Positions 8,947-63,868 of a DNA stretch of 64,000 nt are shown one piece after another (position 1 is the first letter of the stretch; every line of letters starts with the position of its first letter). Source of the stretch: Polytrichum commune. Its lineage: Eukaryota; Streptophyta; Polytrichopsida; Polytrichales; Polytrichaceae. Location of the stretch: contig OX485803.1 of assembly GCA_950295325.1 (NCBI GenBank), positions 58,419,554 through 58,483,553 on the forward strand. The letters run 5' to 3'. The position numbers and the translations under genes are program-made. Under the pieces are notes generated by a model. That model did not search any database. It was given only the letters and a program-made list of their open reading frames with translations, and had not been told where the DNA came from.

Positions 8947-9095
8947 ATCCCTACTCGCACCTCTACCCTCACAGTCTCATCCTACACACCTCACCTGTCT
9001 TCTGTCTGTTGTGACTAACCTTAGCTGCCTCTTGTTTGCATTTACTCCTACTCCTACAAAGTCTGTAGCTCGACCGTGCATTGGAGGTTGCAGCG

Positions 9096-10568
9096 ATGGC
9101 GTTCGGGGTGGGGCGAGCTCTGTCGACACCACTTATGTTTATCAACTTCTGTTTGTACCTTACCGCAGCGGCCTTGGCAGGCTGGGCCTTAAACAGGAAC
9201 TTTGATAACACTAATGGAGTCGGTGAAGGCTATGTCGGTACGTCATGCGCATCAGATTACTCGACAATCCAGCAGTTCATAAAGAATAATTGGGTTCCTT
9301 AATTAGTACAGCCTTATCCTATGGTAGTTTGATCTGCATTAGGTTTGACATGGAAGAGTGTTAATTAGGTTATTCATGATATTGTTTGTGCACCGTAAGC
9401 CTGAGTCCAGCTTTGCAATAGAGGAAAAACGGGACCCTCAATATCAGTCACATGGATCACCAGATCCGGCAATCGTATCGTCTTCTTCCCCCGGTTAAAA
9501 TCAATGGTGTGGACAAGTTCATGCGAGTCTGTTCCCAGCTAGTTCCGTAACTGGAAAAATCAGCCTTGAATTAGATTTTATCCCTGGAGTCGTACCCAAA
9601 GCTTCGGGGATGGAGAATGAATACTGAGCGGGCTTTGTCGGGTGATGTTGTCATGTGTGCAGGCAATACAATAACACCCAGGTTCTTAGAGTTCGCACTG
9701 ATAGCCTGCATGGTGGGATTGGCCTCGGTTTTCGCTGGAACGCACCACGTCCGGGTGTGGAGGATGGACAGCCTCGCAGCGGCAGCGGCGACGTCCTTGA
9801 TGGCTTGGCTTCTCACGCTTCTGGCCATGGGGTACATACTCTGCACTTATGATTGATCCATTGCTTGCAATCTGAATTAACCGAAAGGTCGTCTTAATTG
9901 AATCTCTAGTGAAAGGTGGCAGGATATTTTGCGGGTTAAGGGTTTCCTGATCTGACGCAGGATCCTAACAGAAAATATGATGTTAAATTTGTGCACTCTT
10001 GCACTATGCACCTCTTCATCCATTTCTTGCAATCTGAAACCTCTAATGAAAGGTGACAGTATAAATAGCATGTTGAAGGTTTCCTCTGTAACTGGATCCT
10101 AACAGAAACTTGTGTAAATTGTGCAGTCTGGCAGCCAAGGAGATCCACACTGGAGGTGGCTACCGTCTGGGAAGACTGGTAAGCGAATCCCTTAATTCTT
10201 TATCGGTCCAATCATTTGCTGAGGTTCTGATTTTGTCCGAGCGCACAGAGTTCGATCGCATCTTTGTCTGGGACATCAAGTCGCTGCGTTGTGTTGTGTT
10301 GCGTTATTTTTAGTTTTAAAAAACCTATTTCTGATGCGTGTATGTAAGATTGCAAAGGTGTTTCTTCGCTGTGATATCTTAAACATGAATTGCTTTGGTG
10401 CAGAAAGTGTTGGAGGCCTTCATCATCGTTCTGTCGCTTACCGAGCTGCTCTACTTGCTGTCGTTGCACGCTGGACCCTTCACAAGTGCCGGCCCTGGCT
10501 ACGTGGATGGCACCTACGGGCCCGGCCATCACACTGACAGGAAGATCCCCACTGGAACCAGAGTGTAA
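9096..10568 (+). CDS. AWPM-19-like plasma-membrane protein (copy A)
   Basis: Four coding exons: 9,096-9,237, 9,663-9,831, 10,127-10,178 and 10,404-10,568. They have GT-AG borders and phases that join to a 175-residue protein. It starts MAFGVGRALSTPLMF and has four hydrophobic segments near residues 9-31, 56-73, 85-107 and 123-143. The family landmarks are present: GWALNRNFD after segment 1, FAGTHHVRVWRMDSLA between segments 2 and 3, AAKEIHTGGGYRLGRL before segment 4, and VLEAFIIVLSLTELLYLL in segment 4. AWPM-19/PM19L proteins are four-pass plasma-membrane proteins induced by ABA and desiccation; the rice member OsPM1 has been described as an ABA influx carrier. The ATG is the first in frame and directly precedes the conserved N-terminus. 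ABRE-like motifs lie upstream. A paralogue converges on it at 13,702-15,365. Confidence 0.93.
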
Positions 10569-13701: not shown

Positions 13702-15365
13702 TCAACCACATTCGTGCATTTGTCCTTGAAGGCCATGGTTATGATGTATGTGGTTATGGCCGTGAACACATTGCTGGCCATGACCGCCCATTCCGCCGAT
13801 TGGGCCGAACGGATGGATAGGGTGACCCATCTGGCCCAACAGCTGGGGGTTCCTGAATCCTATAGATGCCCTTCGCAGAACCGGACCGTGCAGGGCCAGA
13901 AAGTAGATCAGCTGAAATACAGACAAGATGATGATCATAGCCTCTATTGCTTTCTGCAACCACCCAACGCGTCAACCCACACTCGAATCTCAAGAAGCTG
14001 CGCTTCTTACGCTTATTGAATTGGAGATGGGGGTGACCTTAAATTATGTTTGACGCTTTCACAAGGTTACAGTGGTTAATGTTTGCTATTAGGTCTCACT
14101 TGACATCACTTTCAGAACTGAAACTTTGCAAGCGAGACAAAATCTGGGGTTACAGCACTCTGAGGTATTAGGATTCATCAGAATATGAAACTGCAAGGCT
14201 TTGAGGACATTTTGCAAGCAGTATTTTCTTACCAGTCTTGTAGGCCTGTACCCAATGTTACTTTCAATCTCCTTGGCTGCAATTCTGAGCCCGCGCCGGA
14301 GCGCACACACACACACACGTTTTGTGTCAGGAATTAGGTCAGCGACAACCATGTTTGGAAATCTACTATACATTTGGAACTTTGAAACAGCGAGGACACA
14401 TGGGCTGCGACGGTGCGTGGACGGCAAGGGTTCAACGTCGACATCTTGAGCGGATGGCCCCGTAAATTTATTCATATACACGGGTGCAACGCGTTCAAAC
14501 TAGTGGCTATACATCAATGTAGGAATGCAGGAATTAGCGCTAGCGCGCAAAACACATACATGTTTTGTGTTGGGAATTAGGTCAACCACAACCATGTTCG
14601 GAAATCTACAGTACATTTTGGGACTTTGAGACAGCGAGGTCGCATGGGCTGAGTTGTGAGTGAACGGCGAGGGTCCGTCAACATGTTGAACGGATGGCCC
14701 AGTAAATTTAATCATATGCACGGGTGCAACAGGTTCAAACTTTTTCCTATACAGTTATCTAAGAATGCAGGAACTGGACATGTGGCTGTCACTGCAGCCG
14801 CAAATGACAAGGTCCTGTTAAAGACCGGAGGCAGAGGACAGAGGGGCAGCGGATGTACAAACTTACCCCATGGCGAGGAGGGTGAGGAGCCAGGTGATCA
14901 AGGAGGTTGCACCTGCCACCGCAAGGCTGTCACTCCTCCACACAAACATATGATGGATTCCAGCAAGAGACGTGGCTAACCCCACCATGCAGGCAATCAA
15001 GGCCACCGGCAAAAAAAATGTTGTAATGCTGTCACCTGCACCCTAACCCAGAGAATTCAAAATGCTTCAACTTCCTGTCACGATCATGATCAACAGCCGC
15101 ACCTTTCTCCTCCACCATTTCTAATTTCCAGCCGCAATTAGTTACGACTATAGCTCTGCTTCCAGCTTATATGAAGAATACTGGAACCCTAGCTCTTTGA
15201 ATGGAGTGGAGTTGGCGACCTACCAATTTCATTTTCACCATACTTGTTGTTGCTGTCGAAGTTTCTGTTCAGAGCCCAACCCGCGAAGCAGGCAGTGACA
15301 AAGTATAAGATAAAATTGATGATCAGCATTGGTATGGCCAAAGCCCTTGCAACCCCAAACGCCAT
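13702..15365 (-). CDS. AWPM-19-like plasma-membrane protein with His-rich tail (copy B)
   Basis: Minus-strand gene of four coding exons: 15,365-15,224, 15,035-14,867, 14,284-14,233 and 13,953-13,702. All borders are GT-AG and the product is 204 residues. The first three exons have exactly the same lengths as in the plus-strand copy (142, 169 and 52 nt), and the proteins align throughout: MAFGVARALAIPMLI, GWALNRNFDSNNKYGENEIG, ACMVGLATSLAG, WRSDSLAVAGATSLITWLL, AAKEIESNIGYRPTRL, EAMIIILSVFQLIYFLALHG. Four membrane segments are expected. The last exon is 87 nt longer than in copy A. It adds a Gly/His/Met tail with ten His and two Cys in the final ~40 residues (GGMGGHGQQCVHGHNHIHHN and following). 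That tail could bind metal ions; this is inference. Intron 2 contains a ~240-bp tandem duplication. No ACGT core is present in the 430 bp upstream. Confidence 0.9.
14300..14778. repeat. ~240-bp direct tandem duplication inside an intron
   Basis: Two adjacent direct copies (about 14,300-14,537 and 14,538-14,778) lie in intron 2 of the minus-strand AWPM-19 gene. They share ATTAGGTCA, ACAACCATGTT, GGAAATCTAC, ACAGCGAGG, GCGGATGGCCC/ACGGATGGCCC, a GTAAATTTA block, CACGGGTGCAAC and AGGAATGCAGGAA. They differ by substitutions and small indels. A CA microsatellite sits at the boundary near 14,303. Confidence 0.8.
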
Positions 15366-36889: not shown

Positions 36890-37270
36890 GAGTAGGTGCA
36901 GTGGTACGGGGTTCGGCCGGGTATTAGCGCCACCCGGCCCGGCCAGGCCCGGAATTTCGATCTGGGCAGACTGGTGGGACCCACCATAGGCCAATCGGGA
37001 CTCCGGATCCCGTTCGACCGCCTGCCGCGTGGGGCGCTGGGGGGAATAGTTTTCACGGGCAGGTTGCTGCTGCCCTGCGTCTCCTCGAAGGCGAGCGAAG
37101 CGTGGCCGATGTTGCAGGAACCGGAGCTTCGGAGCGCCATCGCCACCCAACGCGACAAAGGTTAGGCTTTAGGCTCAAGGCTTAGGCTATCGGATCGTTT
37201 CCCTTTGAACCTCCAGACCGTTTTGTTGTTGATGGAGAGAGCCCTATGACGAGATGAGAGGCAGCCAGCT
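36890..37270 (+). promoter_or_regulatory. GC/CpG-rich promoter and 5' leader of the peptide gene
   Basis: GC content rises sharply here compared with the AT-rich flanks, and CpG is frequent. The stretch ends at the ATG at 37,271. Open frames on both strands (36,871-37,165) are by-products of the composition. The transcription start is not determined. Confidence 0.45.
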
Positions 37271-39508
37271 ATGGCCGGCGCTCCTGCCCCGCTGCTGGTG
37301 TCAATCTGTATGTGCATACTGGGGCTGATGTGCTGCGAATCGTTGGCAGACTCCCGCCCGGTTCACCATGAGACTCGACGACGTGCAGGTAGTGGTTCAT
37401 GTTGCGTTTTGCGATGTTTGTTGGGTGGTTTTTGGTGCTTCGGGACTCACGCGTATTGGAGAGTGGTCACTGCAAGCATGTGGGAGCCAGTGGTTGAGTC
37501 ACCAGTGTTTGAACTTTTTATTTGCTTCGCGGATGATGCAAATGGGGGATGAGAAAGTCGAGAGATTTTTGGAGCCAACTAGGATGTTAGGTTGTCCTGT
37601 TCACTCTCTGTCAAGCCTCTTCTAGTCAGCCCGTGTTGAAGCTGTTCGGCGAAGGATAATTCGTGTTAGTGCATTTCGAGGTTTACATCCATTGAGTAGA
37701 GCTTGTTTAGCTGGCTTCTTGTGTGAGAGAAGTGTTGGTTGTTTGGAAGAAGGAAGCGAACTTCGACTCTTCAATTATTGATGTGAGTAGATGATGTTTG
37801 GGACGACGTTCTTATTCACGAGCTCCACTATTGAATGTGCTGTGCGGGAGGTAGAATCGCGTCCTGGCTGTCCCCATTTTGATAAGAAAGCCTTTACTGT
37901 CTTTTCGGAGCAGCTATGGAGGTGGTCATGTTCATAGGTTTCGTGTAGGACCGAGCTTTACTGCCATTGTAACAGTGATGTAGCTCGAGTCACCAAAACT
38001 TGGTTACATAGTTTGAGTTTTTCGTCGAGCTGAAGCCTCTCTCTCCCTCTCCCTCTCTCCCTCTCCCTCCCTCTCCCTCCCTCTCCCTCCGGATATTGTG
38101 CACTATTTCATCCTCCACTCGATGAATTGAAACGAGCAGCAGTAGTTCTCGGAGGAGTGCTGAATTAATCCCTTAAAATCCCATTGTCGCAGAGTGTGTC
38201 GCAATCCTCTTATACCTCAATGGACGCCACTCTTCACCATATTTACCAAAACTTGTTCCTTGTAACCAAGGATTCTGTGTTACATCCCTTTCCCGTAATA
38301 CATTCTCGTCTCTCCGACCTTGTTATCTCCGAAGCACGTGATTCCTTTGGGACTAGCGGCAGTGCTTCTCTCCGCCTTCAAACCTCGGTTTTGGAGGATG
38401 TCTCGTATCTCCGGTTTCGTTATCCAGTCGTTGCAATTCGACGGCGGTTCCTGTGGACGAGTGAATCGTGCCGAAGCAAATCTAGAATGATTGCAGAGCT
38501 AGTTTTCTAGTCCATCGCAATCTATCCACATGTACTCACAACGTTGGGGGATGGCTCTAAGTCATTGCACGCCATGTCCAGTAGGAGAGGTGTGCTAGTT
38601 ACCGATGCAAGTGCACTTGTTTGAGTGGAAGTTTTCAATGTTGTGATTAAAACTTTGGTTAAGTTTTGTCTGAATCACCGCCCAAGAACGGCGGTGAACA
38701 GGGAGGTTTGTGAAGCATGTCTTGGACATGATAGGTTATTCTCTGACATGATAATGATGTTGCTTGAAGAGTTTCTTCTCACTCTATCCCTCTTCGACTG
38801 TTGAGTCTCTCATGATTGGATTCCTTACCTGGATGTGTATTTCCCGCAGAAAGGAAGATTATTCAAGTTGACCTTGATGGGATTGACGATGGCCCAGAAA
38901 CATTCACAATGCAAGATCATTTCAACTTCCTGGTATGTACGCCTCTCACATTTTCAATGTAGTCAGCTTTCAGAGCTGGTGTAATGTCAATGTTAATAGA
39001 GATTCACACTGTAATGAAGTAGACTGGTGATTTAGTCTGGAAAGTACTACATCAGATTTTGGGTGAATTGGATATCTCAATGTTAGAACCTGAGGATCTG
39101 GAGCCGGAGAATTTGCTCTGTTCTTTGAATTCCTATGCTTGCCAGGGTTAGACTAAGAGTAAAACAACTGTTTTTGTCCAAAAACAGCCACATATCATCA
39201 TGTGACTGGTTGAAACTTTTCAATAAAGATGACGTGGAAATCTATGTCAGGCAGAGACGTGCCCAGTTAGACCTGAAGATACGGTAGAGCGCTGTCCGAC
39301 ACTGATTATGTGTGGAATTTTGCAGAAGAATCGGGAGTTGGAATTGCGAGCCAGAGCTGATCAAAAGAGAACTCATCAAGCTGTAATTTTAGGAACGGCA
39401 TTGACTTCGAAAGCGACGGCGACTCCCACCATTTTTGTAGATGACTACGGCTGCACAACCTCCAACACACACAACGATCCTTCACTGTCCTGCCCGCCAG
39501 GCGGATAG
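37271..39508 (+). CDS. secreted precursor of a PSY-like sulfated-tyrosine peptide (putative)
   Basis: Three exons (37,271-37,388, 38,850-38,932, 39,326-39,508) have good GT-AG borders (CAG|GTAGTG, CTG|GTATGT; acceptors CCCGCAG and TTTTGCAG). Their phases join to 127 residues. Residues 1-26 form a signal peptide (LLVSICMCILGLMCC core, probable cleavage after SLA). A basic RRRAERK stretch follows, then an acidic middle (VDLDGIDDGPE), then a C-terminus with DDYGCTTSNTHNDP at residues 106-119 and PP-GG at the end. This fits the PSY family pattern D-Y-x4-[A/S]-N-x2-[H/N]-D-P. The Asp residues before Tyr108 are what tyrosylprotein sulfotransferase favours. PSY peptides are secreted, sulfated growth/stress-trade-off signals. 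Unusual points are Ser and Asn for the common Ala and His, and two Cys within the peptide. The exon structure is firm; the family assignment is inference. Confidence 0.6.
38038..38090 (+). repeat. (CTCCCT)n low-complexity tract
   Basis: Pyrimidine-only run of CTCTCC/CTCCCT units inside the 1.46-kb first intron of the putative peptide gene. Confidence 0.9.
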
Positions 39509-39689: not shown

Positions 39690-40270
39690 GCGGACTCACT
39701 GCCATTTGCGCAAAATTGTATACCACCATGGCTAAACTCCCATGCAGAGTTTTTTCAAATGCACATCTGGATTCATCCTTTTCCAATATGCTCAACTCTC
39801 TGTACATCAAGCACACGGATGACGTAAGGAGTATTGTTTTTAGGCTTCGATCACTATTTGAGCAGAATTGTACTCCATGGCTACCCTCATTTGCACACAT
39901 CTGTGCTCAGCCTTTTGCAATGTTGGCAGCTCTCTGTGGATCAAGCAGATGGATGAGGTAAAGATTATTATTTTGAGATTTCGACCAAAACTTAAGCAGA
40001 ATCGTACTCTGCCATGGCTAACCTCACATGCCCAGAAATTCTTCATTTGCACAGATCTGTAGTCAACCTTTTGCAGTTTGGTCAGCTCTCTGTGGATCAA
40101 GCAGACCGTTGAGGTAACGAGTGTTTGAGGTTTCAATCCAAAATTTGAGAAGAATTGTATTCCACCATGGCTAACCTCATATCATTGAAGTTCTTCAAAT
40201 ACACATCTGTACTTTTTCAATATGGTCAACTTTCTGTAGATCAAGCAGACGGGTGAGGAAAGCAGTACTC
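39690..40270 (+). repeat. four-unit ~145-bp tandem repeat downstream of the peptide gene
   Basis: Each unit contains AATTGTA(T/C)(A/T)CC...CCATGGCTAA, a TTGCACA(T/G)(A/C)TCTG-like block and CAGCTCTCTGTGGATCAAGC followed by AGA(T/C)GG(A/G)TGAGG. Units start near 39,708, 39,858, 39,998 and 40,147. The array begins ~180 bp after the stop codon, so it may fall in the 3' UTR. It produces spurious frames on both strands. Confidence 0.8.
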
Positions 40271-43199: not shown

Positions 43200-46100
43200 C
43201 TATGACCCAAATGAACTCAAAGCTGAAAGGAAGAAGTCCCGGAATGCAGGTGCTAGAGACGCATCATCAGCCTTAATTTTAGCTTGCGAAGAGCCAGTCG
43301 ATGTGTTGACAAGGAGCTCAACAAGGAAGAAGCCTGATGCAGCAGGGGCATCAACAGCTTGACCATAGAAAAAGAACTTGAATGTTGGGGCTTTCCCACC
43401 TGAAGCCATGCACTCTACTGACTTGGCTTGCATATGGCGCAACAATGGTTGTGGAGTTGGTAAAGCAGCAGGACTGGACAATGTATGATCCTGCAATTTT
43501 GCATTCAGATATTGCAGAGTTAACATCACAGGAGTACACAATTCACACTACATCTCTGGGAATGAACCACCTTCCAAAAGCCCCTCAACTTGTTGCCATT
43601 TATATGTGAATGAGTTGACAGATTCTTCTCTAGAATATGAATAAGCAGCAAATCAGCTTTACAAGTACACAAGGACAAGAGTTGCAGGATAGTTAACAGA
43701 GGGATTAATAAGGTTAGATCATAGGAGATGAGGTAGAAGAAAGAAAGGTAACCAGATCTAACAAAGCCTGAAAGATTGGAGGAATTTAATAGTGAAGAGC
43801 AGATACATATGTAAAGAACAAAAAACATTGAATAAAGAAAAATAATAATAGAGAATAAAATGGAATTAAAAACATAAGGAAGTGGCTTGAAGGCACAAAC
43901 CAGAGTTGTTGCAACTGCAAGTTGACCCCACTTTTGTTGAAATCCCTTTGAGTCTAGGGAGGGTTTTGCTTTTAGCTTCAAAGTGGTGGGAGCAGGTGAA
44001 GAGCTGATGTTTGTGTTGAAACCAAGTAAGTCTTCAAAGTCTAGTAATGAGGTTGAAGCTGCAATGGGAGCAGTCATTGGTCGGTTTGTTGGGGGTGGGA
44101 GGGTTGGTGAAGGTGACCTACACAAAACATCGACAAAATGGTCATCACCACGTTAGTTTATTCAGAATGCCATGTGCATGGAAGTAACTTTGACCTAGTC
44201 ACACTTAACTTCTAGGGCGTAATCATGAAATCTTTTATCTCAGTAACACAACACTGGCACCTAGATCATAGCCACCTCAAAATCTCTTCATAGTCACCTC
44301 GACTTACTTGACTTCACTGTCTATGATGATTTTTAAAATTGATTTGAGTGACTTCTTTCAAGCCAGAATGAAGTGACAGGGACAATGCTGACCTTGGTGC
44401 AAAAGATGATGTTTCAAACCCAGATAGATCTGGGCCACTGTAAGCATGGGAGCCATTGCTGTTGGTCACCAAGCTTTCTTCTCTATCGGATGCACTCAGA
44501 AGAAGATCGTTATCATTAGCATCAACAAGTTGACTAGGCAGCACATCTTCAGTTGTTGTAGGGCCCATTGGCAATATATCTGACTCCTCCGTTATAATCG
44601 GTCCCCGATGCTCTTTGTCCAGAAACATGTACGAAGGCTGCAAAACAGAGGTGATGTCACAAATCACATTCTTATTGCCAAACATCAAAAACTCCATGTA
44701 GGAACACAAAGGAAGAACATCATGCAGAACATGACAAAGCACATTAAGGACATCATGGATACATCCCTCTTCCATCTCATTGTCCTTGAATTCTAGTTTT
44801 GAGTAACCCGTCCTGACCAACCCAGACATACCCCAAAAATAGGACACATACCTTAAGAATTTGTTCTATAAAATCAAAACCAATATAAGATCATTAATGC
44901 AAAATATAAGGTCTATAATACCTCTTGATATAGAACAGAAAGACTGTTAAACTCATCAAAAATGCGATCCTTGATTTCACTGCTCTGTGTATCAGCAAAA
45001 ACGGAAACTGCCTGTTTTGTGGGGTTCACAACTTGTTCAGCAATCTCCACACCCTGCTGCAACAACCTATAGTACAACAGGGCCCTATCATGCACATCCT
45101 GCCATTATCCAAATCAGAAGTTAGAGAGCATGTAAGTGTTTGTTGTCTGCTGCCAGTTTGGCTAGAAAATTCTGCAGTAAATGCAATCACCCATAGCAAG
45201 CTAAAATGGGTTCATTGGTGACTACAGCTCTTCCGATTAGGCGAGCAAGCAGATTTTGCTGGGACTGACTTACTCAAGATGGTAAAATTACTTGGTTTGC
45301 ATGATTTTGCAGAGAAGTAGTGATGGTGCTTTCCCAGATACCACACTAGATAAATATTGTGTTGTATGGATGAGAATTAAAGAAGCAAGAGAACACTTGA
45401 GCTTTCACTACCCTCCATGGGCTAGTGCAATTAGTCAGCTGTGTGGTTTAAAAAAAATTGTATAATGCTAAATAGCCATTCATCTAGAATGGATCAGCCA
45501 TCACATGGGACACCATTAAAGTAAGAAGTGCTACCAACCCCCCTGCCCCCTAAAAAACAAACACAATAAGATACCTGATGGACGTCAGCAAGCCCAGCTG
45601 TAAGTGCAGCCCCCAACATCTTGATGCTCTCAGGAGGTCTCTTGAAGAACAGCTTCATCACAGCTGTCAGGAGCTCTAGTTTTACCTGCCAACCATGTAC
45701 AACAAAATCAGCAAACTCACTGCTGACATTCAACTTGCTCTAAGAGGAGAATTTAGGTGTTAGGCTGACAGTCACTTTAGATGTATAACTAAACCAGTGA
45801 AAATAGTGTAAACAGTTGAAAACATTGAGCTCGTTAAGCTCCAAGACAAGAACAATGCATACCTCTGCAGAGTCTTCTTCAGCCCAATTGTCAATAAAGC
45901 CCTCCAGAATGTAAGGTGCATCCAGCATGTCATATGCATACTCTCCGAGCATCCACACTAGAGCAGCTTTGGCTTTTGGCTCTGTCACAGTTTTGCTGCT
46001 CACACTGCCAACAACTGCAATGCAGTCATGACTCCACTGAGGGTATTTGCGCAAGAGATCCTTAACAAGTACCTGTAAACCAAAGTTCATATAATGCATA

Positions 46101-49100
46101 AGTTCAATGCTTACTCACCAATGTTGATCATTAGCATGGTAAAGAACACAATATCCGCATAGGGCCCCTCAGCTTGATACAAACTGCACCACATACCCCC
46201 ACTATTGCAAACTCTCGATCTCAAAATACAAGGAAAACAGTGCTTCACACATAAATGTATAACATCAAACTTCTGCTTGAAAGAGGCAAGGATTTTCTGA
46301 CATCAGGCTGTGTGCACGGGGATTCTTATGCAATTCAACTATCATGCATGACATAAACTTAGTTTCATCCACATTAGTATCTAGTTTCCACATTCATTCA
46401 CGGACAAACTTATGGGCAAGAAAAAAAGCAAACCAAGAGCTCTGCTTTAGGGCAGAGCTAATAAAACATTAGCATTCAGTGCTATAGTCCTCATCTCAAG
46501 AAGATCCTCACATATTCAAAAAGAGTCTACTTGTACTTAATTCTGACACCTTTTGTGGCTCTACCAATTCAATCATGTATTATTAGGAAACTATTGAGAA
46601 TACCTCCCTGATATCAGCATCAAGCCCCATGGCAGCAACTGGCATCCTACCTTTGTAGAGTCAAAATAAGAACAAGGATAGTAAAGAGAAGGAGAGGAAT
46701 AAAGTAGGGATTGTTCAATCTACTAGAACATACATTCTGTTTGTATTATGACATATTTTGGGTTTGTGCTCATTTTCTATCAAACTGAATCTAAAATTCT
46801 GATTTTTGTGTTATCAAGAAATACTTTGGTGGAATTGATTTCCATTTTGCAACTACTTACATATCATCATCCCTTGCATTGCTACAGACTCGGCATCAGG
46901 TAGAGAGCTCAAAGTAACAGCAGGATAGGATATCCAAGCTCACTGACCCCCTGACTCAAATGTGTAGAAAGTCTACTCTCACCAAATTCTTCATATATGT
47001 GATGAGCAGATGCTTACCAAAGTCTCAGCAGTCACATAGTCCTTCTCCATTTCAAGGAACTGAAGTAGACGATCAACAATTGCATTAACATCATACTGCT
47101 GCAAAGCAATCTTTCCAACAGCTCGAATTGACTCCCGGGCTATTTGTACATCCACATTTGCTGCGTATTCGCTAAGCTCTGTCACTGTAAATCAAAAGCA
47201 AATACCTTAAAACATAGTGTCACCATAAGATTCTAGCACCTGTGTTCTACTATACACAAATTTATATGGCCTTTAAAACCATGGAATGGAAAACCTGCTA
47301 TCTGAGATATAAGAAGTACTAGATGCAGAAGATATACGCAAGAAAATATCTAAAATTAAGGTACAGGGTTCATGCAAGGTAGTTGTAAAGGAACACTTTG
47401 GAACTTACCAATTTCATATGTGTTGGTCTCATTGGCCACAGCAGTAAGCATCTCCAACTTCAGCTTTTTCACATATGAGGGGTCACTGTACCGGCAGTAG
47501 AAGTGCTTGTAGTCGCTTGAAAATAGCACAGGGGCTCTCAAGACAAGTAAATGTAAGTGACTTAATACTGCATATGTTTGCTCAGCACTTCCGGAGTTGA
47601 CAAGAGTAAGCAATGGTGCTTTGATTCGCTCATACACCTGTAAGAACAAGTAAGGCATTTCCCATGAGGTTCTGTCTATTCCAATGGCTTCAAACTTTCC
47701 ACTGACAATACAGCTGTAATTTTATATATTTTTGAGATTATAAAGTCCCAAAGTTGAGCCTAAATGAAGGAAAAACTGAGAATACACTTAGAGAAAAACC
47801 TGCTGGTGAATGTCTGCCATTGAGATTGTCAAATGAAGAAACACTTTGATGGTAGCCAACACTACAGCACTGTTTGTATGCTGCAGTCGGTCTTCAAGAA
47901 TATTCATCATGTCAAATGACTCATCTGAATCTGATGGTATGTACTTTGCAACCACATCTAGGACCAAGCATTGAGCCCATTCCGTGAACTCCTTTATCCT
48001 GCATTAGACAGACTTTGTGAGACGCCTGTCCAACAAGGGAGAAACTGATTGCTTCAGAAACAACCAAAAAACAGTAAACGAGACACTGGTGGGGCATTTG
48101 CAGCAAATGATACAAGGGATACAATGGGATACAAGGGACATTGACTAAGGAGCTGATTCATATCAAGAGGGAAATTAATAGCCTTGTTCACCTGTTTAAC
48201 AGAGAGTAAATAACAGCCTTGCTAAAGAGATGTTCTCGATCCCTGGCAGCTGTCTCTGAGGAGATATTTGCCTCTGCTGTGTAGATTTCTTGAAGAGCAG
48301 ATAGGCAGTTGGCAACCACCTACAGATTCATATATAAATTAGCCACTTTGAATGTATAAGACAAGATGGAAATGACATCTGGAAATGCAATACTGTGCAA
48401 GTACGACCTTGTCACAAATCCGCCCTTGACATGATGCAACTTAAGGTGTTCAAATTTTAAAATATGCTGAAAAAGGGATGTTTTGGAACTACTTCCCGTT
48501 CAAAGGTTTTCTCAACTATTGTGTTCACGAATGGGCTATAAACAAACAATATCTCAGCTTACAAAAACTTAGAAAACCCTGGTGTTTTGTCGCAGTGAAC
48601 AATAAGTAGTTGTGAATCTAAATTACTGAAGTGGGACAGCTTTAGTAGTTTCACTGGAAGTGGAAACTAGCAGCCTTGAGAAGTCTGTACTGTGTATTCA
48701 AATATATCTAAACCGGCTCAGTGCAAAAAATTGTTTTGTTTTGTTTTTTATTTTTTAAATTCCACCCAAAAGAAAGGGAGCTTTGTACGCTCAGCTACAA
48801 ACTACCATTGCGTTAATCGTGTGTAAGTGAAATGGAATTCAAATAGAAGAATGAGTACACTACATTGAGGTCCAAGAGAAAAGTCCAAGGCTTTGTAAGA
48901 TTCATAATTCATTTCAATTAAAGTGCGATATTTTTTATTTTTTTAAACGGACACACCTTTCGTCTAAGCTTACACAGATACTTGAAGGCTGACGAGCTGC
49001 TAAGTTGCTGCATACACCCCTCTTGATAAATTTTGTGGTGTTTTTCAGAAACTTCTTATGAATGACCCAAGGTTTCAAATCCAAGAAAACAGGCTGAAAA

Positions 49101-49678
49101 CATGTACTTTGCAGCTTGCTAAGATCAGGAGGAGATTTACTTACTTGAGCATCTGGGTCGTTCATAAGGAGAGCTCTGAGCATAGCAGGGAACTCATTAT
49201 CAGTGCACTGCCCAGGAGCAATGTGGTACAACTTGAGCACCCCCATAGCTGCCACCGTCCTCACATACCCATTGTTATCCTTCAACCCCGACCGCAGAGG
49301 GCCTACCAAATACTCCACCAAATTCTTCACTCGTAACGAACACAAGCTTCGCAATGCAAGTCCTCTGATCATCGGATCGTCATCATGACAGTCCTTTTGC
49401 AGAAAGTTTATGGTCAAGAGAGCTAAATCAGGATGTCCACGAGCGTAATTTCCTACATAAAGATAACACATCTTCTTGAGCACAAGATCCGATGTCGCAG
49501 AGCACATCACCATCTCCGAGAACAGAGATGACACATCGATTCCGATGGTCATGTATGATATCACTTTCTTATACAGCTCCCTTTTGATGTCCTCTACTCC
49601 AGGTGCTCTACTTCCAGCTAGTTGCCTCAGCTGGCCCTTTAGCTCTACCAGCTCCCCCTTCCTGTTATCCGCATTCAT
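43200..49678 (-). CDS. AP4B: AP-4 adaptor complex beta subunit (beta-adaptin-like)
   Basis: Eleven exons: 49,678-49,145, 48,319-48,192, 47,998-47,800, 47,637-47,409, 47,184-47,018, 46,072-45,863, 45,685-45,575, 45,098-44,922, 44,637-44,393, 44,117-43,901 and 43,490-43,200. All have GT-AG borders and compatible phases, and sum to 2,508 nt (835 residues), close to the ~840 of the Arabidopsis protein. Exon 1 carries LKGQLRQLAGSRAPGVEDIK, the VISYMTIGIDVSSLFSEMV segment, KKMCYLYVGNYA and DDDPMIRGLALRSLCSLRV, the adaptin trunk. Later exons give YERIKAPLLTLVNSGSAEQ, SYVKKLKLEMLTAVANETN, AVGKIALQQYDVNAIVDRL and PQWSHDCIAVVGSVSSK. A hinge (GPDLSGFETSSF) and the C-terminal ear (HMQAKSVECMASGG, FKFFFYG) follow. 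AP-4 sorts cargo at the trans-Golgi, including vacuolar targeting in plants. The ATG at 49,678 precedes the conserved N-terminus. The 43,490 acceptor is the least certain border. Confidence 0.95.
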
Positions 49679-50330
49679 GGTTGCTAATCTTCACAAGAGA
49701 CTCCTAACCTAATAATCTATCGATGCTCCAAATCAGCCCCAAACCACTGGCTCCAATGCCAATTCTTACCCTAACATGAAAAACTACATGCAAACTACAT
49801 GAAAACTTCCAGAAATAAACCAGAATTCCTCGTTACCACAAGATTGAAAAAATTGCCTTAGCCTCCTCCTTTCCTCACTAGGGTTTGGTTTCGGTCCAAT
49901 GTTGTGCCGAACACCTTCACTTCTCAGACTAAATCCGCAACAATCATACACTCCAAAATTTCTTCCTCACTTGGATATCAAAAAAATTAGCATCCTGATG
50001 TCCTCAGCATGAGCATTCCGCCATCGCCACCGCAAACACTCTTCGCACAGGGTGGAAATCAGAAGATAGCGTGGCGGACACGAATCGGGGCCAAATTTTG
50101 TGCAATTTGTCCCGTTCAATAACGAAATTTTCGCTCGATCAGCAAAGAGCGAAGAGTGACACCGATCTAGCAATGGCGGGTGGAATCGGTTGAGAAGTTT
50201 GGAAGATTTGTTGCAAACATGTGAGAGCAGTAAGAGCGGAGCGAGAAAGTCAGGGGAATGAGTAAGAGAGAGGAGAGAGAGGACGTTCCCAATTGACGTT
50301 CTCCCACGTTTCCTGTGTCTGCTCCCAAGG
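49679..50330 (-). promoter_or_regulatory. 5' leader and proximal promoter of AP-4 beta
   Basis: This segment is less AT-rich than the flanks and shows CpG-containing stretches near 50,000-50,300. Short frames on the minus strand here (about 49,967-50,173) look like leader sequence. I cannot place the transcription start. Confidence 0.35.
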
Positions 50331-57289: not shown

Positions 57290-59739
57290 ATGTTTCGAGT
57301 ATACCAGGTGAAGTTTGCGCAATGCGACCGGCGATACCGAGGCCAAATCGTGTGCGGGCCAAGCGGGGGGCACCATCATCATATGTATGCGAGCATGCCA
57401 TGCAGTCCATGTGCACAGCCAGGAATTTATCCTCAGAACCTCCCGGCCATGCCACCACCGCTGACCCCCATCAACTACCAGAGCTACATTGACACTGCGC
57501 AGCAGTTGGATGCTGTCGCTGTGCGCAAAGCAGTGTCAACTAGGGTTGTTGCAGGAGCAGGAAGCCCCGCCCACGTTCCTCCGAAATCAGAGAGCGATGG
57601 AAATTCCGGTGAAGATAGTAGGGTTGATGATCAGATTTACAGGACCCCCGCAGCAGCGGAAGGGGATCATCAGGATCAGGCTGGGGGATTATTAAGCCGT
57701 GCCGGGCTTGCAGCAGGAGAGTCCAAGAGTGCGAGTGGCAAGGAGACCGACCTCACATGGATTGATTGGGCATGGCCCGGCAGCCACACACCATGCCCAT
57801 TCAATTCCCGTCACCCTGCAGATCAGCTGTCCACCCGCACACATCGCCTTTCGGTAGGTTTACCATGCATGCTTGCTGATATATTCATCAGCCACAAGAG
57901 TGAGTGCATCAGGTGAGAGAATTGCTCCTGCAAACCACAAAGTTCTGGTCCAAGAATTTGTTCATGGTCATGCAGTGATGCCCACAAATGTTGACCAGCT
58001 GTCTGAGAATAACTACTGCGAACTCGTCTTCGAAATAGCACTACCGATTATAAGAAATACATCAGAATTTGATACACCATTTTTTATAATAGGTACGTCC
58101 TTCAGAAGGACATTATGTCTAGCCTATCTGAGTACCTGTGGTGTTACTCATGTGTATGTCAATTTGATGAAGCCATGGTGCGTGGGTGTGTATGTGGAAG
58201 CACAGCTTTTGGCACCCGGTATGTTTCAAAGTTGTCCACAATTGCAAGCATTAGCATTGCGTATTTCCAGCCTCCCATGTTATGCGAAGCTCACCAGCAA
58301 TCTTCGAACCCTTATGAACCGCATCAGGGCAGCTGTCAAAGTACGCCACTTCCATAGCACCTGGTACAATGCTTTAAACACTTCCATCGTGCTTGCAAAA
58401 ATGTTGATGCATGATCTTTAATAAGACACATGATAGGTATGGAGCTTCTTGCTGAGTTACCAATTGCAACACCCTTCACATGCTATCCCCTTGGTAAAGT
58501 GTAAAACTGTGTATGTGCTTGATGCAATGATGATGTAAGGAGGTGGATTGTAGATTGGTTGGTGAAGTTTTTAGTCTGCCTATAACCAATTAACACCACA
58601 TCAGAAATCTACCCATGCTCTTGAAAGCAAATGGCCATTCAAAGCAAAAGATGACACAAAGGATGTATATCCAATGCTTAGCTTGTACTATGCTGTTGTT
58701 CTTTCAGTGTCCACAGATGGTGAGCGTTGCAGTTGATGTGAAGGAGGTCTCTAATGCCTACATCTTTGAAGGTGACATGCCTGGCTTGAAGAATACTGAC
58801 ATCAAGGTACACTTACACAAACGTGTGTCCCTATGTTGCACATTGATGTTGCATAAAAACCGCATGATGGGTTATAATTCAGAGTGAATTTACTACAGGA
58901 TAACCTTTCCTCTAGAGAGAGAGCCTTGGTTTGTTTCACAAGGTGTGATTTATATGCCCTATCAAAAGCAGAAGGTAATGTACACTTGATATTATCATTA
59001 TGATTGTCAGTTCTTGAGGTACAATTTTACCAAACTGCTTGCTTTCTGGTCTTTTAGATGTCCAGCACATTGAGAATACCTGGGCCCAATTTGAGTATCA
59101 AACAAAATCAAAGTGCAGAAATGCTCATAATGGATACTCTGACATGAAAACATTATTTAATTAATTTGAGTATCAAACAAATTAAATGCAGAAATGCACA
59201 CAGACAGGAAATGTACACCCTGACATGAGAACATCGTGTTCCCAGTTGAGCATCAAACAAAATCAAATCGCAGAAATGCACATAGACAAGGAGTGGACAC
59301 CCTGACATAAAAATATCGTTTCCCCAATTTGAGTATTAAACCAAATCAAATTGCAGTAATGCTCAGACAAGAAATGGGCACCCCTGACATGTAAACATTT
59401 TTTGCATGGTTGCGACCTGAAAGAAGACTAAAATAATCTGCCCTTTGGCCATTGCAGGTGCAAGTGGAGAATGACACTCTCTTGAAAATTAGTGGTGAGA
59501 GGAAACCTTATGAGTTTCCAGTGGACCAAGATATTAGAGATGTGCTTGTGGAGCGAATTCCTGGCAAATTCATGCGCAAGTTCAATTTACCTGCAAATGC
59601 AAACCTTGACAATATCACTGCGGCTTGCCAAGATGGTCAACTTACCATCATTGTGCCCAAAAACCCTCCACCTGACATCCACCGGCCCCGCACATTTGCT
59701 GTTCCTGTTAGCTCTGCAAACCTGAAAACTGAACAGTAG
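57290..59739 (+). CDS. small heat-shock protein, HSP20/alpha-crystallin domain, with putative long N-terminal arm
   Basis: The alpha-crystallin domain is split between two firm exons. 58,708-58,806 gives VDVKEVSNAYIFEGDMPGLK; 59,458-59,739 gives VQVENDTLLKISGERKPYEF, GKFMRKFNLPANANLDNI and CQDGQLTIIVPK, then a short PPP-rich tail with FAVPV. The domain reads most like plant cytosolic class II, but the phase-0 intron after NTDIK recalls the intron of class III genes. The usual Tyr-x-Arg-x-Glu-Arg-Arg strand is replaced by VLVERIPGKF. Such proteins are holdase chaperones that bind unfolding proteins. The first exon is uncertain: an open frame from ATG 57,290 to the donor at 57,853 (TCG|GTAGGT) is phase-compatible and would add a 188-residue arm rich in Pro, His, Ser and acidic residues, giving 314 residues, long for the family. 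The gene converges on the hydrolase 345 bp away. Confidence 0.75.
59085..59400 (+). repeat. four-unit ~80-bp tandem repeat in the HSP20 intron
   Basis: Each unit has TTTGAGTATCAAACAAA or a variant, then TGCAGAAATGC, then AGACA(A/G)G, then (C)CCTGACATGA and AACAT. The array fills most of the second intron of the small heat-shock gene and ends ~57 bp before exon 3. Confidence 0.8.
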
Positions 59740-60083: not shown

Positions 60084-63000
60084 TCAAGCAGATGCATGAG
60101 AGTGCAGGGGCATCGAGCTTTGAAGGCTCTTTTTTGCTAAAAATGTTTGAATATGAAAGAGAAATTCCTCTGGACTTTCCTCCTGAGGCACATGTCCGCA
60201 CTGCTTCATCAGTATAAATTCAGCATTCGGCAATGCGTTTGCCAATCGCCTTGCATTCCACGCAGGAACCAAACGGTCTGTGTCACCTGTGATCACCAAA
60301 ACTGCACAGAAAATAACCCAGAGACATTTCTGTCAAGAATGCACAAAGGCAAAGCTATAGAAACTCAACAGAATTTGCTGGAATGCTTATTGCGATACAA
60401 ATTTATGCCACAAACATGATTGACCTACCTGGACAAGTGACTTCTTTCAATCGTCTCCCAAGGGGTAGCTTTGGCTGCAACCCAGTTGCCGGGTTGACTG
60501 TCAATGCAAGCACAAATTCAAGTAGTGCTTGTTCCCAATCTCTGCACCGCAATGGCTACCATGCCCACATGTGTTGAATGATTAATGTGTTGAACTGCTG
60601 CATTGAACTTTCACAGTGGAAATACTCTTACAAAAATTGTGCTGGTACAGACTGGTGAAATGGATTCACAGCAGATGCTGCGTGGACCACAATTTCCAGT
60701 GCTGTGGAGGTACGCAAATGCCGTCCTGTTGGCATTGAGACTTGTAGATCTATAATGTCTACTAAATAACACTAACAAAAATTATGTTCCAACTTTCTCT
60801 GCTTGTCAATCAATACAAGAACTTTTCATGCACAACTTTTTTGTACTCCGTCAACTTGACCTCTTCCACGACAATGTAGCCAGAGTCTTGAATTAGAAGA
60901 AGGCCATACGCCAGAGGCTGGGCCTGTTTTGTGCTTTAGGCACAAAAATGGTGTTTGTGAATTTCAACACTTGTGAAATCAAGCTTAGTAAATAGAAACA
61001 CAATCTATAAGAAACAAGTGTGCAATTGTACCTTTGTGTATCCATCAAGTATATGTTTGTCTGCTTTTTTAGGGTCATACCATGCCATGCGGACTGCCCT
61101 CGTTCCGAATCTGTCTATTATAAATCGAATCTACAACCAAAACCGCCCATACAACACTAATCGTTAATAGAGATTCCTGACCAAATACCAGAAACTGCTC
61201 ATCTTATTACTCAAACCTTGACTGAATTCGGTCACCTTTCTTGTCTTTCCATTTGTGCTATGTGGAGTTGGTTGCTGTTGTTCTATTTGAGTTATGTGGT
61301 TCTGATAAGCAGGAAAGAGGTTGAGATAAAGTACTGTCCAAATTGCTGGAGGTGATCTGACGATCCCACGTATGAGCCTCTCGCGTGCCCCTTGTATTGC
61401 ACTTCCCAAGGATGCTACAACCTTCTCAGGTGCCAACGTTTGAAACAAAGCCTGAACTCCCGCTTTAATAATTAATAGCACCTTGAAGACTTGCATCAAC
61501 AGCCACCAAGCCCCAGCACGTGCAGCCAAGAAAACCTTGGCCAACCCAGATCCCTTTAATCCTGCCTCTGCCTTCCTCACTGCATTGTCGGGATCTTTCA
61601 CTTGAGCATGCAAAAGAAAACTGTCAACTCATCTTGCTGACTTCACCAGCTGTACTGGATAAAAAATTGTAACAAGTGTCTTGGTTTTGTAAAATTATTC
61701 TTGGACAAATGTGGAAACAGTTTCCAAGTGTGTATCTGAGCTCATTTGCCAGTAAGTAGGGTGATTCACTTCAACAAGTATTGATTAGCCATTATATCTC
61801 TGGAGCAAACACGTTGTAACTACAGTAGCTTTCTTTTATCTCACTGAAAGTACAGCCTGCTTCCAACCCAGAATAGACAAGAAACAAATTTCTAAAATCA
61901 TGGCATTCTATGGAAGGATGTCTGTGCATTATCCACTAAAAGAACAAATTTACCGCAACAATTGAACTTCCCTTCTTGCTTTGTAAACACTGGACCTTAT
62001 TCCGCGAGCATACTGAGGGCTTCGATAGCTCAAATCCACTAACTAGTAGGTAATGGATGCGAGAAGCCCTGCCATAGCCTGAAGTAGGTGGGCGCCCAAA
62101 CTACTGAGCCGCGGTAGCAACAAGGTAGGTAATGGGTGCCTACTACAGCTGATGGCAGGGCAAAATGTTTCCATTACCAAATGTAGTGACTAGGCCATGG
62201 CAGAGGCATCAATTACGGGTGATAATGTGCCTCCTCATATCCAATCATGAATAGATTAAAAAATCGCTCAACATGACCACTACAAACTAGGTAATAGATG
62301 TTGAGGAGCCTTACCACAAGTTAGTAGGCACCCAAACTATTGAACCGCAACAACAACAAAGGTAGGTACGGGGTGCCTACTAGAGCCGATGGCATGGGAA
62401 CACATGTTCATTACCATGCGTAGTGGTTAGGCCATGACAGGGTCATCAATTACAAGTGATATTGTGCCTCCTCATATCCAATCAGGAATAGACAAGTCAG
62501 CAAAATTGCTTGGCATGACCACTACGTCTGGTGGAACCCAATACCTGGGTCTGGTGTAGTAGCTGCTTTCTCAACTTCTTCCAGAATGATTGGTGCCGCA
62601 AGTGCAGGTGCCACCAGAATCAAAGCACCAACTTTATCAGGTGCATCTAAGTAGGATTGCAACGCTACAAGGCAGCCTGCAGAGTGTCTGCGTTCCAGCA
62701 TACAAAAATAACATTATATCTTCGTAAGATTGTTCTGTGGGATGAAGAATCAAAGACTTTTTGATGCAAGCCTCAAAACCATGTCAGAGAATATTGTGCA
62801 AGTTTAAGCCTTAATCTGAGATCGTGCCTCAAAAGTGGAATGCAGTAACAGCTCCAGAACCAACCGATCAGCTACTCAGTCCAAATAGCATCAGAAAATT
62901 GTTATGTGCTCATCACAACGAGGGAGAAACCAAAAATTACCCAATCAGAACCACTTGTTGTGCGTGAAGAAAGTCAACAAATGATAATGTTGCCGCCACA

Positions 63001-63868
63001 GAGAATTCCAAGCTGAATGGGTTAAGTGCAGCCACCCCAGTGGCATCCTGTACTTCCCCCACTGTCAAACCCCATGTTAAGTGCCGAAGCTTTAGACACA
63101 AATATGCAATCTTGGTTACAAAGAAAGTCATTCTAATACATGTAATTCAGCCACTTGTATCTACAGTCTTTGGTCTAGCAATAAAGAATCATCCTTTCTT
63201 GCAACCATAAAGGCAATTCAGGGGCACACAATAACAGATTCTCTGCACTTGGTTATGATTTTGTTGTGGATATTGCTAAGATGGTGTTAACCCATTTCAA
63301 TGGGTACCTTTGATTTGAGGCCGAGATGTGAGCCCAAAGGCAGGCCGGTCGAAAGCCACGACGCGTGACCCAATAATGTCTGCCAGAGGTTTCAAGACTC
63401 TGCTCCATGAAAATAAGGACGCACCAAACCCATGCAGAAGTATAGCAGGTGCACTTGTTGACATCTTTTTATTTTTAAGAGTGCTGACCCTCTCAGAGGT
63501 TGTGGATTCATTGTCTGCAGGAAAAACACATTCCCAAAAATTAAAGTATGTTACTCAATGGACATCACCACTTGTCCACCAATCAGCTACCAGGATGTGT
63601 GAACAAGAAATGTAAATCTAAACCCATGTGCACATCAATTATTCATCTGTGCATTACTGACAAAAAAAAATTTGGGGGCAAGACCTGTAGGTGGATTGGC
63701 AATTTTGTAGTGGAGTTGCACGCCATATAGTTCAGCAAAGCGGCTATCCTCATCAGCCAGCAACCAAGGATCCACACAGTCAGTTTGATCTACTCCTGCA
63801 ATGTATCTCTGTTTTGAACTCCCAGGCTTCCTTGGCAATGGTATTGAGCTTGATAATGACTTCAAGTT
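60084..63868 (-). CDS. alpha/beta-hydrolase fold protein (5' end outside the window)
   Basis: Eight minus-strand exons: 63,868-63,685, 63,514-63,308, 63,061-62,941, 62,687-62,545, 61,600-61,335, 61,130-61,032, 60,555-60,429 and 60,301-60,084. They join in phase to 454 residues. Family landmarks in order are ELYGVQLHYKIANPP, PAILLHGFGASLFSWSRVLK (HGFG oxyanion loop), VVAFDRPAFGLTSR, FVDFLHAQQVVLIGHSAG (nucleophile Ser in GHSAG, split by an intron), ALILVAPALAAPII, a hydrophobic/basic lid (AGAWWLLMQVFKVLLIIKAG), FGTRAVRMAWYDPKK, GYTKPLRCRDWEQALLEF, VITGDTDRLVPAWNARRL (acid Asp) and QCGHVPQEE (catalytic His). The complete triad suggests an active hydrolase; the substrate is unknown. It resembles the Arabidopsis At1g80280/At1g15490 type. 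The first exon seen starts after an acceptor (TCTGTGCAG), so upstream exon(s) lie beyond 64,000. Confidence 0.92.
62040..62525. repeat. ~243-bp tandem duplication in a hydrolase intron
   Basis: Two adjacent direct copies (62,040-62,283 and 62,284-62,525) share TAGGTAAT(G/A)GATG, GCACCCAAACTA, GGTAGGTA, GGTGCCTACTA, CATCAATTAC, TGTGCCTCCTCATATCCAAT and CATGACCACTAC. The array lies in the ~0.94-kb intron between the 62,687-62,545 and 61,600-61,335 exons and ends only about 20 bp from the 5' splice site. Confidence 0.8.

What the first reader, a model, noticed from the sequence alone, without database searches (positions are those of the whole stretch)
37271..39508. PSY-like sulfated peptide precursor with two cysteines and a three-exon structure
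Three well-spliced exons give a 127-residue secreted precursor whose C-terminus reads DDYGCTTSNTHNDP, followed by a Pro/Gly end. This matches the PSY spacing (DY, four residues, small residue-Asn, two residues, polar-Asp-Pro). The Ser, Asn and especially the two Cys flanking the core are not in the common angiosperm consensus. A Cys pair could make a disulfide-closed sulfopeptide, which I do not know to be described for PSY peptides.
Basis: partly seen in the sequence, partly recalled or inferred. Interest (0 to 1): 0.7.

Follow-up and report, generated by a model that had tools for sequence, protein, structure and literature searches.

The report
Cysteine-paired PSY-like plant peptide precursor
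A plant gene here probably encodes a small secreted protein ending in a hormone-like peptide that resembles the growth-regulating PSY family but carries two extra cysteines, so it may be a ring-shaped variant; no relatives could be compared, so it is a good lead and not a proven member.

Summary
Exons 37271-37388, 38850-38932 and 39326-39508 join at GT/AG borders into a 127-residue protein with a signal-peptide-like start and the C-terminus DDYGCTTSNTHNDPSLSCPPGG. Beyond the signal region its only cysteines are C110 and C123; the ring they could form holds most of the core, with Asp-Tyr just outside. A relaxed PSY motif occurred 3 times in 400 Markov-resampled windows. Of 1015 ORF ends in the window, 8 (68 with loose thresholds) can be spliced to a signal-peptide-like first exon. 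A real secreted-peptide gene is therefore likely, though unproven.

PSY membership is only partly supported: the published motif DYx4[AP]NxxHxP is not met, because Ser replaces Ala/Pro and Asn replaces the conserved His. An essential Cys pair is already known in another plant peptide family, CTNIP/SCREW, whose 9-11 residue spacing filter is not met either. Searches of Pfam, PDB, viral and prokaryotic contigs gave no relative, and no plant genome was available, so conservation is untested. Best reading: a divergent PSY-like sulfopeptide, possibly disulfide-closed.

The parts
37271..37388 (+). Exon 1: start codon, signal-peptide-like N-terminus (residues 1-26, likely cut before Asp27) and start of the pro-region
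   Evidence: splice donor CAG|GTAGTG, rank 6 of 167, best in 37271-37560
37389..38849 (+). Intron 1 (1461 nt, phase 1), contains a CT-rich array at 38036-38090
38850..38932 (+). Exon 2: pro-region
   Evidence: acceptor rank 7 of 143, best in 38600-38932; donor rank 1 of 167
38933..39325 (+). Intron 2 (393 nt, phase 0)
   Evidence: competing acceptors before 39146 and 39251
39326..39508 (+). Exon 3: rest of the pro-region, C-terminal peptide and TAG stop
39441..39505 (+). Segment coding the C-terminal peptide DDYGCTTSNTHNDPSLSCPPGG (residues 106-127; first codon begins at 39440): candidate sulfated Tyr108, Cys110 and Cys123, PSY-register core DYGCTTSNTHNDP

Best explanation
The gene encodes the precursor of a secreted, C-terminally encoded peptide hormone of PSY type. 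Shown by sequence: a frame in three spliceable exons, a signal-peptide-like start, no cysteine in the pro-region before the peptide, and a C-terminal Asp-Asp-Tyr followed by a core in the register of PSY, with exactly two cysteines (C110, C123). Inferred: the signal peptide is cut after Ala26; tyrosylprotein sulfotransferase in the Golgi sulfates Tyr108; a protease, probably a subtilase, frees a peptide of about 21 residues that ends at or near the natural C-terminus; C110 and C123 bond in the secretory pathway and close a 14-residue ring around most of the core; the peptide binds a leucine-rich-repeat receptor kinase like the PSYRs (subfamily XI) and shifts the balance of growth and stress response.
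For: Gene model and signal-peptide-like start. Gap-free register with AtPSY1 (recalled) at D1, Y2, G3, N8, D12, P13; score 35 against at most 31 in 20 resampled windows. Relaxed motif 3 in 400 resampled windows. 8 of 1015 ORF ends joinable to a signal-peptide-like first exon, this one among them. Asp-Tyr is described as the minimum for tyrosine sulfation, and acidic residues next to Tyr matter for the sulfotransferase. Codon score positive only in the proposed frame.
Against: Published PSY motifs not met: 0 matches for DYx4[AP]NxxHxP and DYx5-7NxxHxP. His, conserved in 32 of 32 aligned sequences of Tost et al. by their text, is Asn. No homologue found. With looser thresholds 68 of 1015 ORF ends are joinable. 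Codon score is weak, 0.05 against 0.21-0.42 for the self-scored training exons. A stronger competing acceptor would remove the peptide. Upstream ATGs precede the start. The relaxed motif was chosen after seeing the sequence.
Confidence: 0.5

Rival explanations
1. A CTNIP/SCREW-like stress peptide: a C-terminal peptide whose Cys pair is essential for binding an HSL3/NUT-like receptor kinase and recruiting a BAK1-type co-receptor. The resemblance to PSY would be convergent or accidental.
For: [quoted passage not shown] the C-terminal 23 residues of CTNIP4 suffice; a similar Marchantia sequence was used as outgroup, so relatives outside flowering plants may exist.
Against: Cys spacing is 13 positions (12 between); confident CTNIPs were filtered for 9-11, and CTNIP4 has C58 and C68. 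Asp-Tyr plus the N and DP register is not explained. Reported in Amborella, eudicots and monocots except Poaceae. CTNIP sequences could not be obtained for a direct comparison.
Confidence: 0.14
2. Not a gene, or not this peptide: the exon chain and motif are a chance assembly, or the locus is spliced so that the peptide is not made.
For: At 0.0075 relaxed motifs per resampled window a genome of thousands of windows would hold tens of chance motifs. Competing acceptor before 39146. Weak codon score. No homologue and no expression data.
Against: Product of motif chance and joinability is about 6e-5 to 5e-4 per window if independent. Donor 2 is the best of 167 and the four sites are all among the top seven of their kind.
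Confidence: 0.2
3. An orphan, lineage-specific two-Cys secreted peptide, neither PSY nor CTNIP; Asp-Tyr may or may not be sulfated.
For: No Pfam family up to E 10; it fails the stated filters of both families.
Against: Six positions in gap-free register with AtPSY1 (recalled).
Confidence: 0.13
4. A divergent RGF/GLV/CLEL peptide, another Asp-Tyr family that ends in His-Asn (recalled).
For: Asp-Asp-Tyr site and an internal His-Asn.
Against: His-Asn lies at core positions 10-11 and is followed by ten residues, while RGF peptides end in it about 13 residues from Asp (recalled). The pattern DYx8-10HN does not match this peptide.
Confidence: 0.03

Closest known systems
[quoted passage not shown] AtPSY1
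   Same: Signal-peptide precursor of 70-200 residues with a C-terminal Asp-Tyr peptide; gap-free register at D1, Y2, N8, D12, P13; variable pro-region (AtPSY1 letters recalled).
   Different: Asn in place of the conserved His; Ser in place of Ala/Pro; two cysteines, C110 and C123, around most of the core.
CTNIP/SCREW peptides, ligands of HSL3/NUT
   Same: Secreted, C-terminal, two cysteines near the end.
   Different: Cys spacing 13 against a 9-11 filter; here an Asp-Asp-Tyr site and PSY-like register. CTNIP4 is 70 residues, this precursor 127.
Root-knot nematode PSY mimics (MigPSY)
   Same: Deviant PSY-type peptides with Asp-Tyr and a later Asn (PMC10629525, passages).
   Different: MigPSYs keep NxxHxP and lie right after the signal peptide in 50-51 residue products; here NxxNxP at the end of a 127-residue plant precursor.

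Membership tests
PSY | Motif DYx4[AP]NxxHxP (Tost et al. 2021) | tested here: not met
   0 matches in six frames; Ser at the [AP] position, Asn at the His position
PSY | Five conserved residues D, Y, N, H, P | tested here: not met
   4 of 5; His is Asn
PSY | N-terminal secretion signal on a precursor of about 70-200 residues with a C-terminal peptide | tested here: met
   127 residues, hydrophobic start with an acceptable -3/-1 site, peptide at the C-terminus; hydropathy only, no SignalP run
PSY | Sulfated tyrosine in the mature peptide | not testable with these tools
   Asp-Asp-Tyr context present; modification needs mass spectrometry
PSY | Perception by PSYR1-3 type receptors | not testable with these tools
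   binding or genetics needed
PSY | Common descent with known PSY precursors (orthologues) | not tested
   no plant sequence collection available; own genome not held
CTNIP/SCREW | Two Cys in the C-terminal peptide with 9-11 residue spacing | tested here: not met
   two Cys present, but C110 and C123 are 13 apart, 12 residues between
CTNIP/SCREW | Sequence similarity to CTNIP precursors, binding to HSL3 | not tested
   CTNIP sequences are in supplements that could not be opened; binding needs experiment
RGF/GLV/CLEL | Asp-Tyr with His-Asn at the end of the peptide (recalled) | tested here: not met
   DYx8-10HN does not match this peptide; ten residues follow the His-Asn

The most novel reading that the evidence does not exclude
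A disulfide-closed, tyrosine-sulfated PSY peptide: a land-plant lineage combined two chemistries usually treated as separate classes, sulfated linear peptides and Cys-bridged peptides, in one ligand, which could even link the PSY type with Cys-pair peptides of the CTNIP/SCREW kind.
Probability: 0.25. Interest if true: 0.65.

Novelty: new variant of a known kind. Interest (0 to 1): 0.38.

Why it matters
In the current model PSY peptides repress stress-signalling receptors and so permit growth (passages). A ring-closed PSY would show how a linear sulfopeptide can be held in one shape, perhaps with redox control. Papers disagree on which sulfated peptides early land plants had, and a precursor like this would be missed by the published motif. 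If it is CTNIP-like instead, it bears on whether that module predates flowering plants.

Tried and rejected
Searches without a useful result: Pfam with the full precursor, 0 families up to E 10; PDB with the precursor, two weak matches with E 1.2 and 1.6 to a phage tail protein and a DNA methyltransferase, and with the last 33 residues, none up to E 10; exon 3 in IMG/VR contigs, 38 pattern matches and none confirmed, and in prokaryotic genome contigs, 205 pattern matches and none confirmed; Rfam, 0; tRNA, 0; own genome not held. No second copy of the peptide in the window: the next best 18-mer scores 24 against 107 for itself. RGF-like reading rejected. Text search for fragments of the peptide found two unrelated papers. 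Structure prediction was not run: a lone 60-residue sequence without relatives would not test a disulfide.

Literature. PMC7913133: first of six parts of the text, passages, section 4.1. PMC9191895: outline and passages. Passages only: PMC13074997, PMC13091385, PMC13056886, PMC4526923, PMC10629525, PMC11756074, PMC10834447, PMC10043930, PMC13157962, PMC12907539. PMC8329595: the two passages shown were both from its reference list (35). Two papers that I wanted, Furumizu et al. 2021 and the He et al. 2024 review, are not held. That a Cys-paired PSY was not seen in print rests on searches and those passages, in an open-licence library without supplements.

Full report
WHAT IS THERE. The + strand of 37271-39508 holds three exons, 37271-37388 (118 nt), 38850-38932 (83 nt) and 39326-39508 (183 nt with the stop), separated by GT/AG introns of 1461 and 393 nt. 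Joined, they encode 127 residues. The first 26 look like a signal peptide: Kyte-Doolittle mean up to 2.46 over 15 residues, with Ser24 and Ala26 at -3 and -1 of a cut before Asp27. No dedicated signal-peptide predictor was run. The last 22 residues read DDYGCTTSNTHNDPSLSCPPGG. Cys 13, 15, 21 and 22 lie in the signal region; C110 and C123 are the only others.

IS IT MORE THAN CHANCE. The strict motifs DYx4[AP]NxxHxP and DYx5-7NxxHxP have no match in the window. A relaxed motif, chosen after seeing the sequence, has one match here; its expectation is 0.01 per window over 100 Markov-resampled windows for [APS] at position 7 and 3 in 400 for [APSGT]. All 3 of the latter also had a stop within 25 residues, so a nearby stop is no extra evidence. 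Against the AtPSY1 core (recalled) the peptide scores 35; the next best place in the window scores 24, and the best scores of 20 resampled windows lie between 21 and 31. Separately, 8 of 1015 stop-ended ORFs of at least 35 codons on both strands can be reached from a signal-peptide-like first exon through one or two introns with splice scores at least near those of this gene; with three looser settings it is 13, 41 and 68 of 1015. This gene is among them in each setting. If motif and joinability are independent, the product is about 6e-5 to 5e-4 per window: unlikely for one window, not negligible over a whole genome. The codon score, trained on 289 adaptin codons of this window, is positive in the proposed frame alone (0.05, against -0.14 to -0.21 in the other five) but well below the self-scored training exons (0.21 to 0.42).

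WEAK POINTS OF THE GENE MODEL. The AG before 39146 scores above the one used (3.8 against 3.1) and leads at once to a stop that removes the peptide; the AG before 39251 would keep it and add 25 residues; the AG before 39393 loses it. Skipping exon 2 or retaining intron 1 loses it too. In the 270 nt before the start there are four ATGs, at 37109, 37232, 37246 and 37254, opening ORFs of 18, 5, 3 and 24 codons, the last overlapping the main start. The transcription start is unknown.

WHAT IT IS MOST LIKELY. The C-terminus fits AtPSY1 (recalled) without gaps at Asp1, Tyr2, Gly3, Asn8, Asp12 and Pro13. Tost et al. name five conserved residues, D, Y, N, H and P, present in 31 of their 32 sequences, the exception lacking only the P. 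Four are here; His is Asn. It is therefore PSY-like, not a tested member. Asp-Tyr is described as the minimum for sulfation. C110 and C123 could close a 14-residue ring that holds most of the core and leaves the candidate sulfotyrosine two residues outside. Sulfation, ring, processing and receptor are inference.

THE RIVAL THAT MATTERS. Rhodes et al. 2022 (PMC9191895, outline and passages) describe CTNIPs: peptides with two conserved Cys that are required for activity, for binding HSL3 and for recruiting BAK1. They report them in Amborella, eudicots and monocots except Poaceae, filtered confident candidates for a Cys spacing of 9-11 and rooted the tree with a similar Marchantia sequence. Here the spacing is 13, so that filter is failed. 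The CTNIP sequences are in supplements that I could not open, so relatedness stays open.

CONTEXT. Neighbouring ORFs match beta-adaptin on the minus strand (N-terminal region in ORFs at 45740-46114, 47356-47721 and 48935-49690; appendage at 43203-43547), AWPM-19-like (9069-9299 and 9575-9853, +), HSP20 (59437-59736, +) and alpha/beta hydrolase (60087-60332 and 63300-63554, -). That fits plant nuclear DNA, AWPM-19 being a plant family by recall; the species was not identified. All 124 ORFs of at least 75 codons were scanned against Pfam; the nine families matched at E 0.001 include no receptor kinase. Shorter exons were not scanned.

LITERATURE ON EARLY PSY. Tost et al. found a single PSY in Physcomitrella. 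A 2026 review groups PSY1-type peptides as largely vascular and scarce or absent in bryophytes. A 2026 survey calls PSY and RGF the most recently emerged sulfated families, and another 2026 paper reports PSY-like sequences in several protist lineages. The record is inconsistent, and the published motif would miss this precursor.

VERDICT. A probable secreted-peptide gene with a PSY-like, Cys-paired C-terminus, a new variant of a known kind if real. Interest is moderate because splicing, conservation and chemistry are all untested.

Noticed in passing
39699-40269: Four copies of a degenerate tandem-like repeat, spacing 134, 156 and 144 nt, starting about 190 nt after the stop of the gene; Tandem Repeats Finder did not list it.
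   Followed up: partly
37109-37328: Four ATGs upstream of the main start (37109, 37232, 37246, 37254) open ORFs of 18, 5, 3 and 24 codons, the last overlapping the main start; possible translational control if the transcript begins upstream.
   Followed up: no
38036-38090: CT-rich tandem array (CCTCCCTCTC and related units) inside intron 1.
   Followed up: no
14301-14773: Two tandem copies of a 240-nt unit, 81% matches.
   Followed up: no
9069-9853: AWPM-19-like gene in at least two exons on the + strand; one search counted a third matching ORF that I did not locate.
   Followed up: partly
43203-49690: Beta-adaptin-like gene on the - strand: N-terminal region in three ORFs and the appendage domain in a fourth.
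   Followed up: partly
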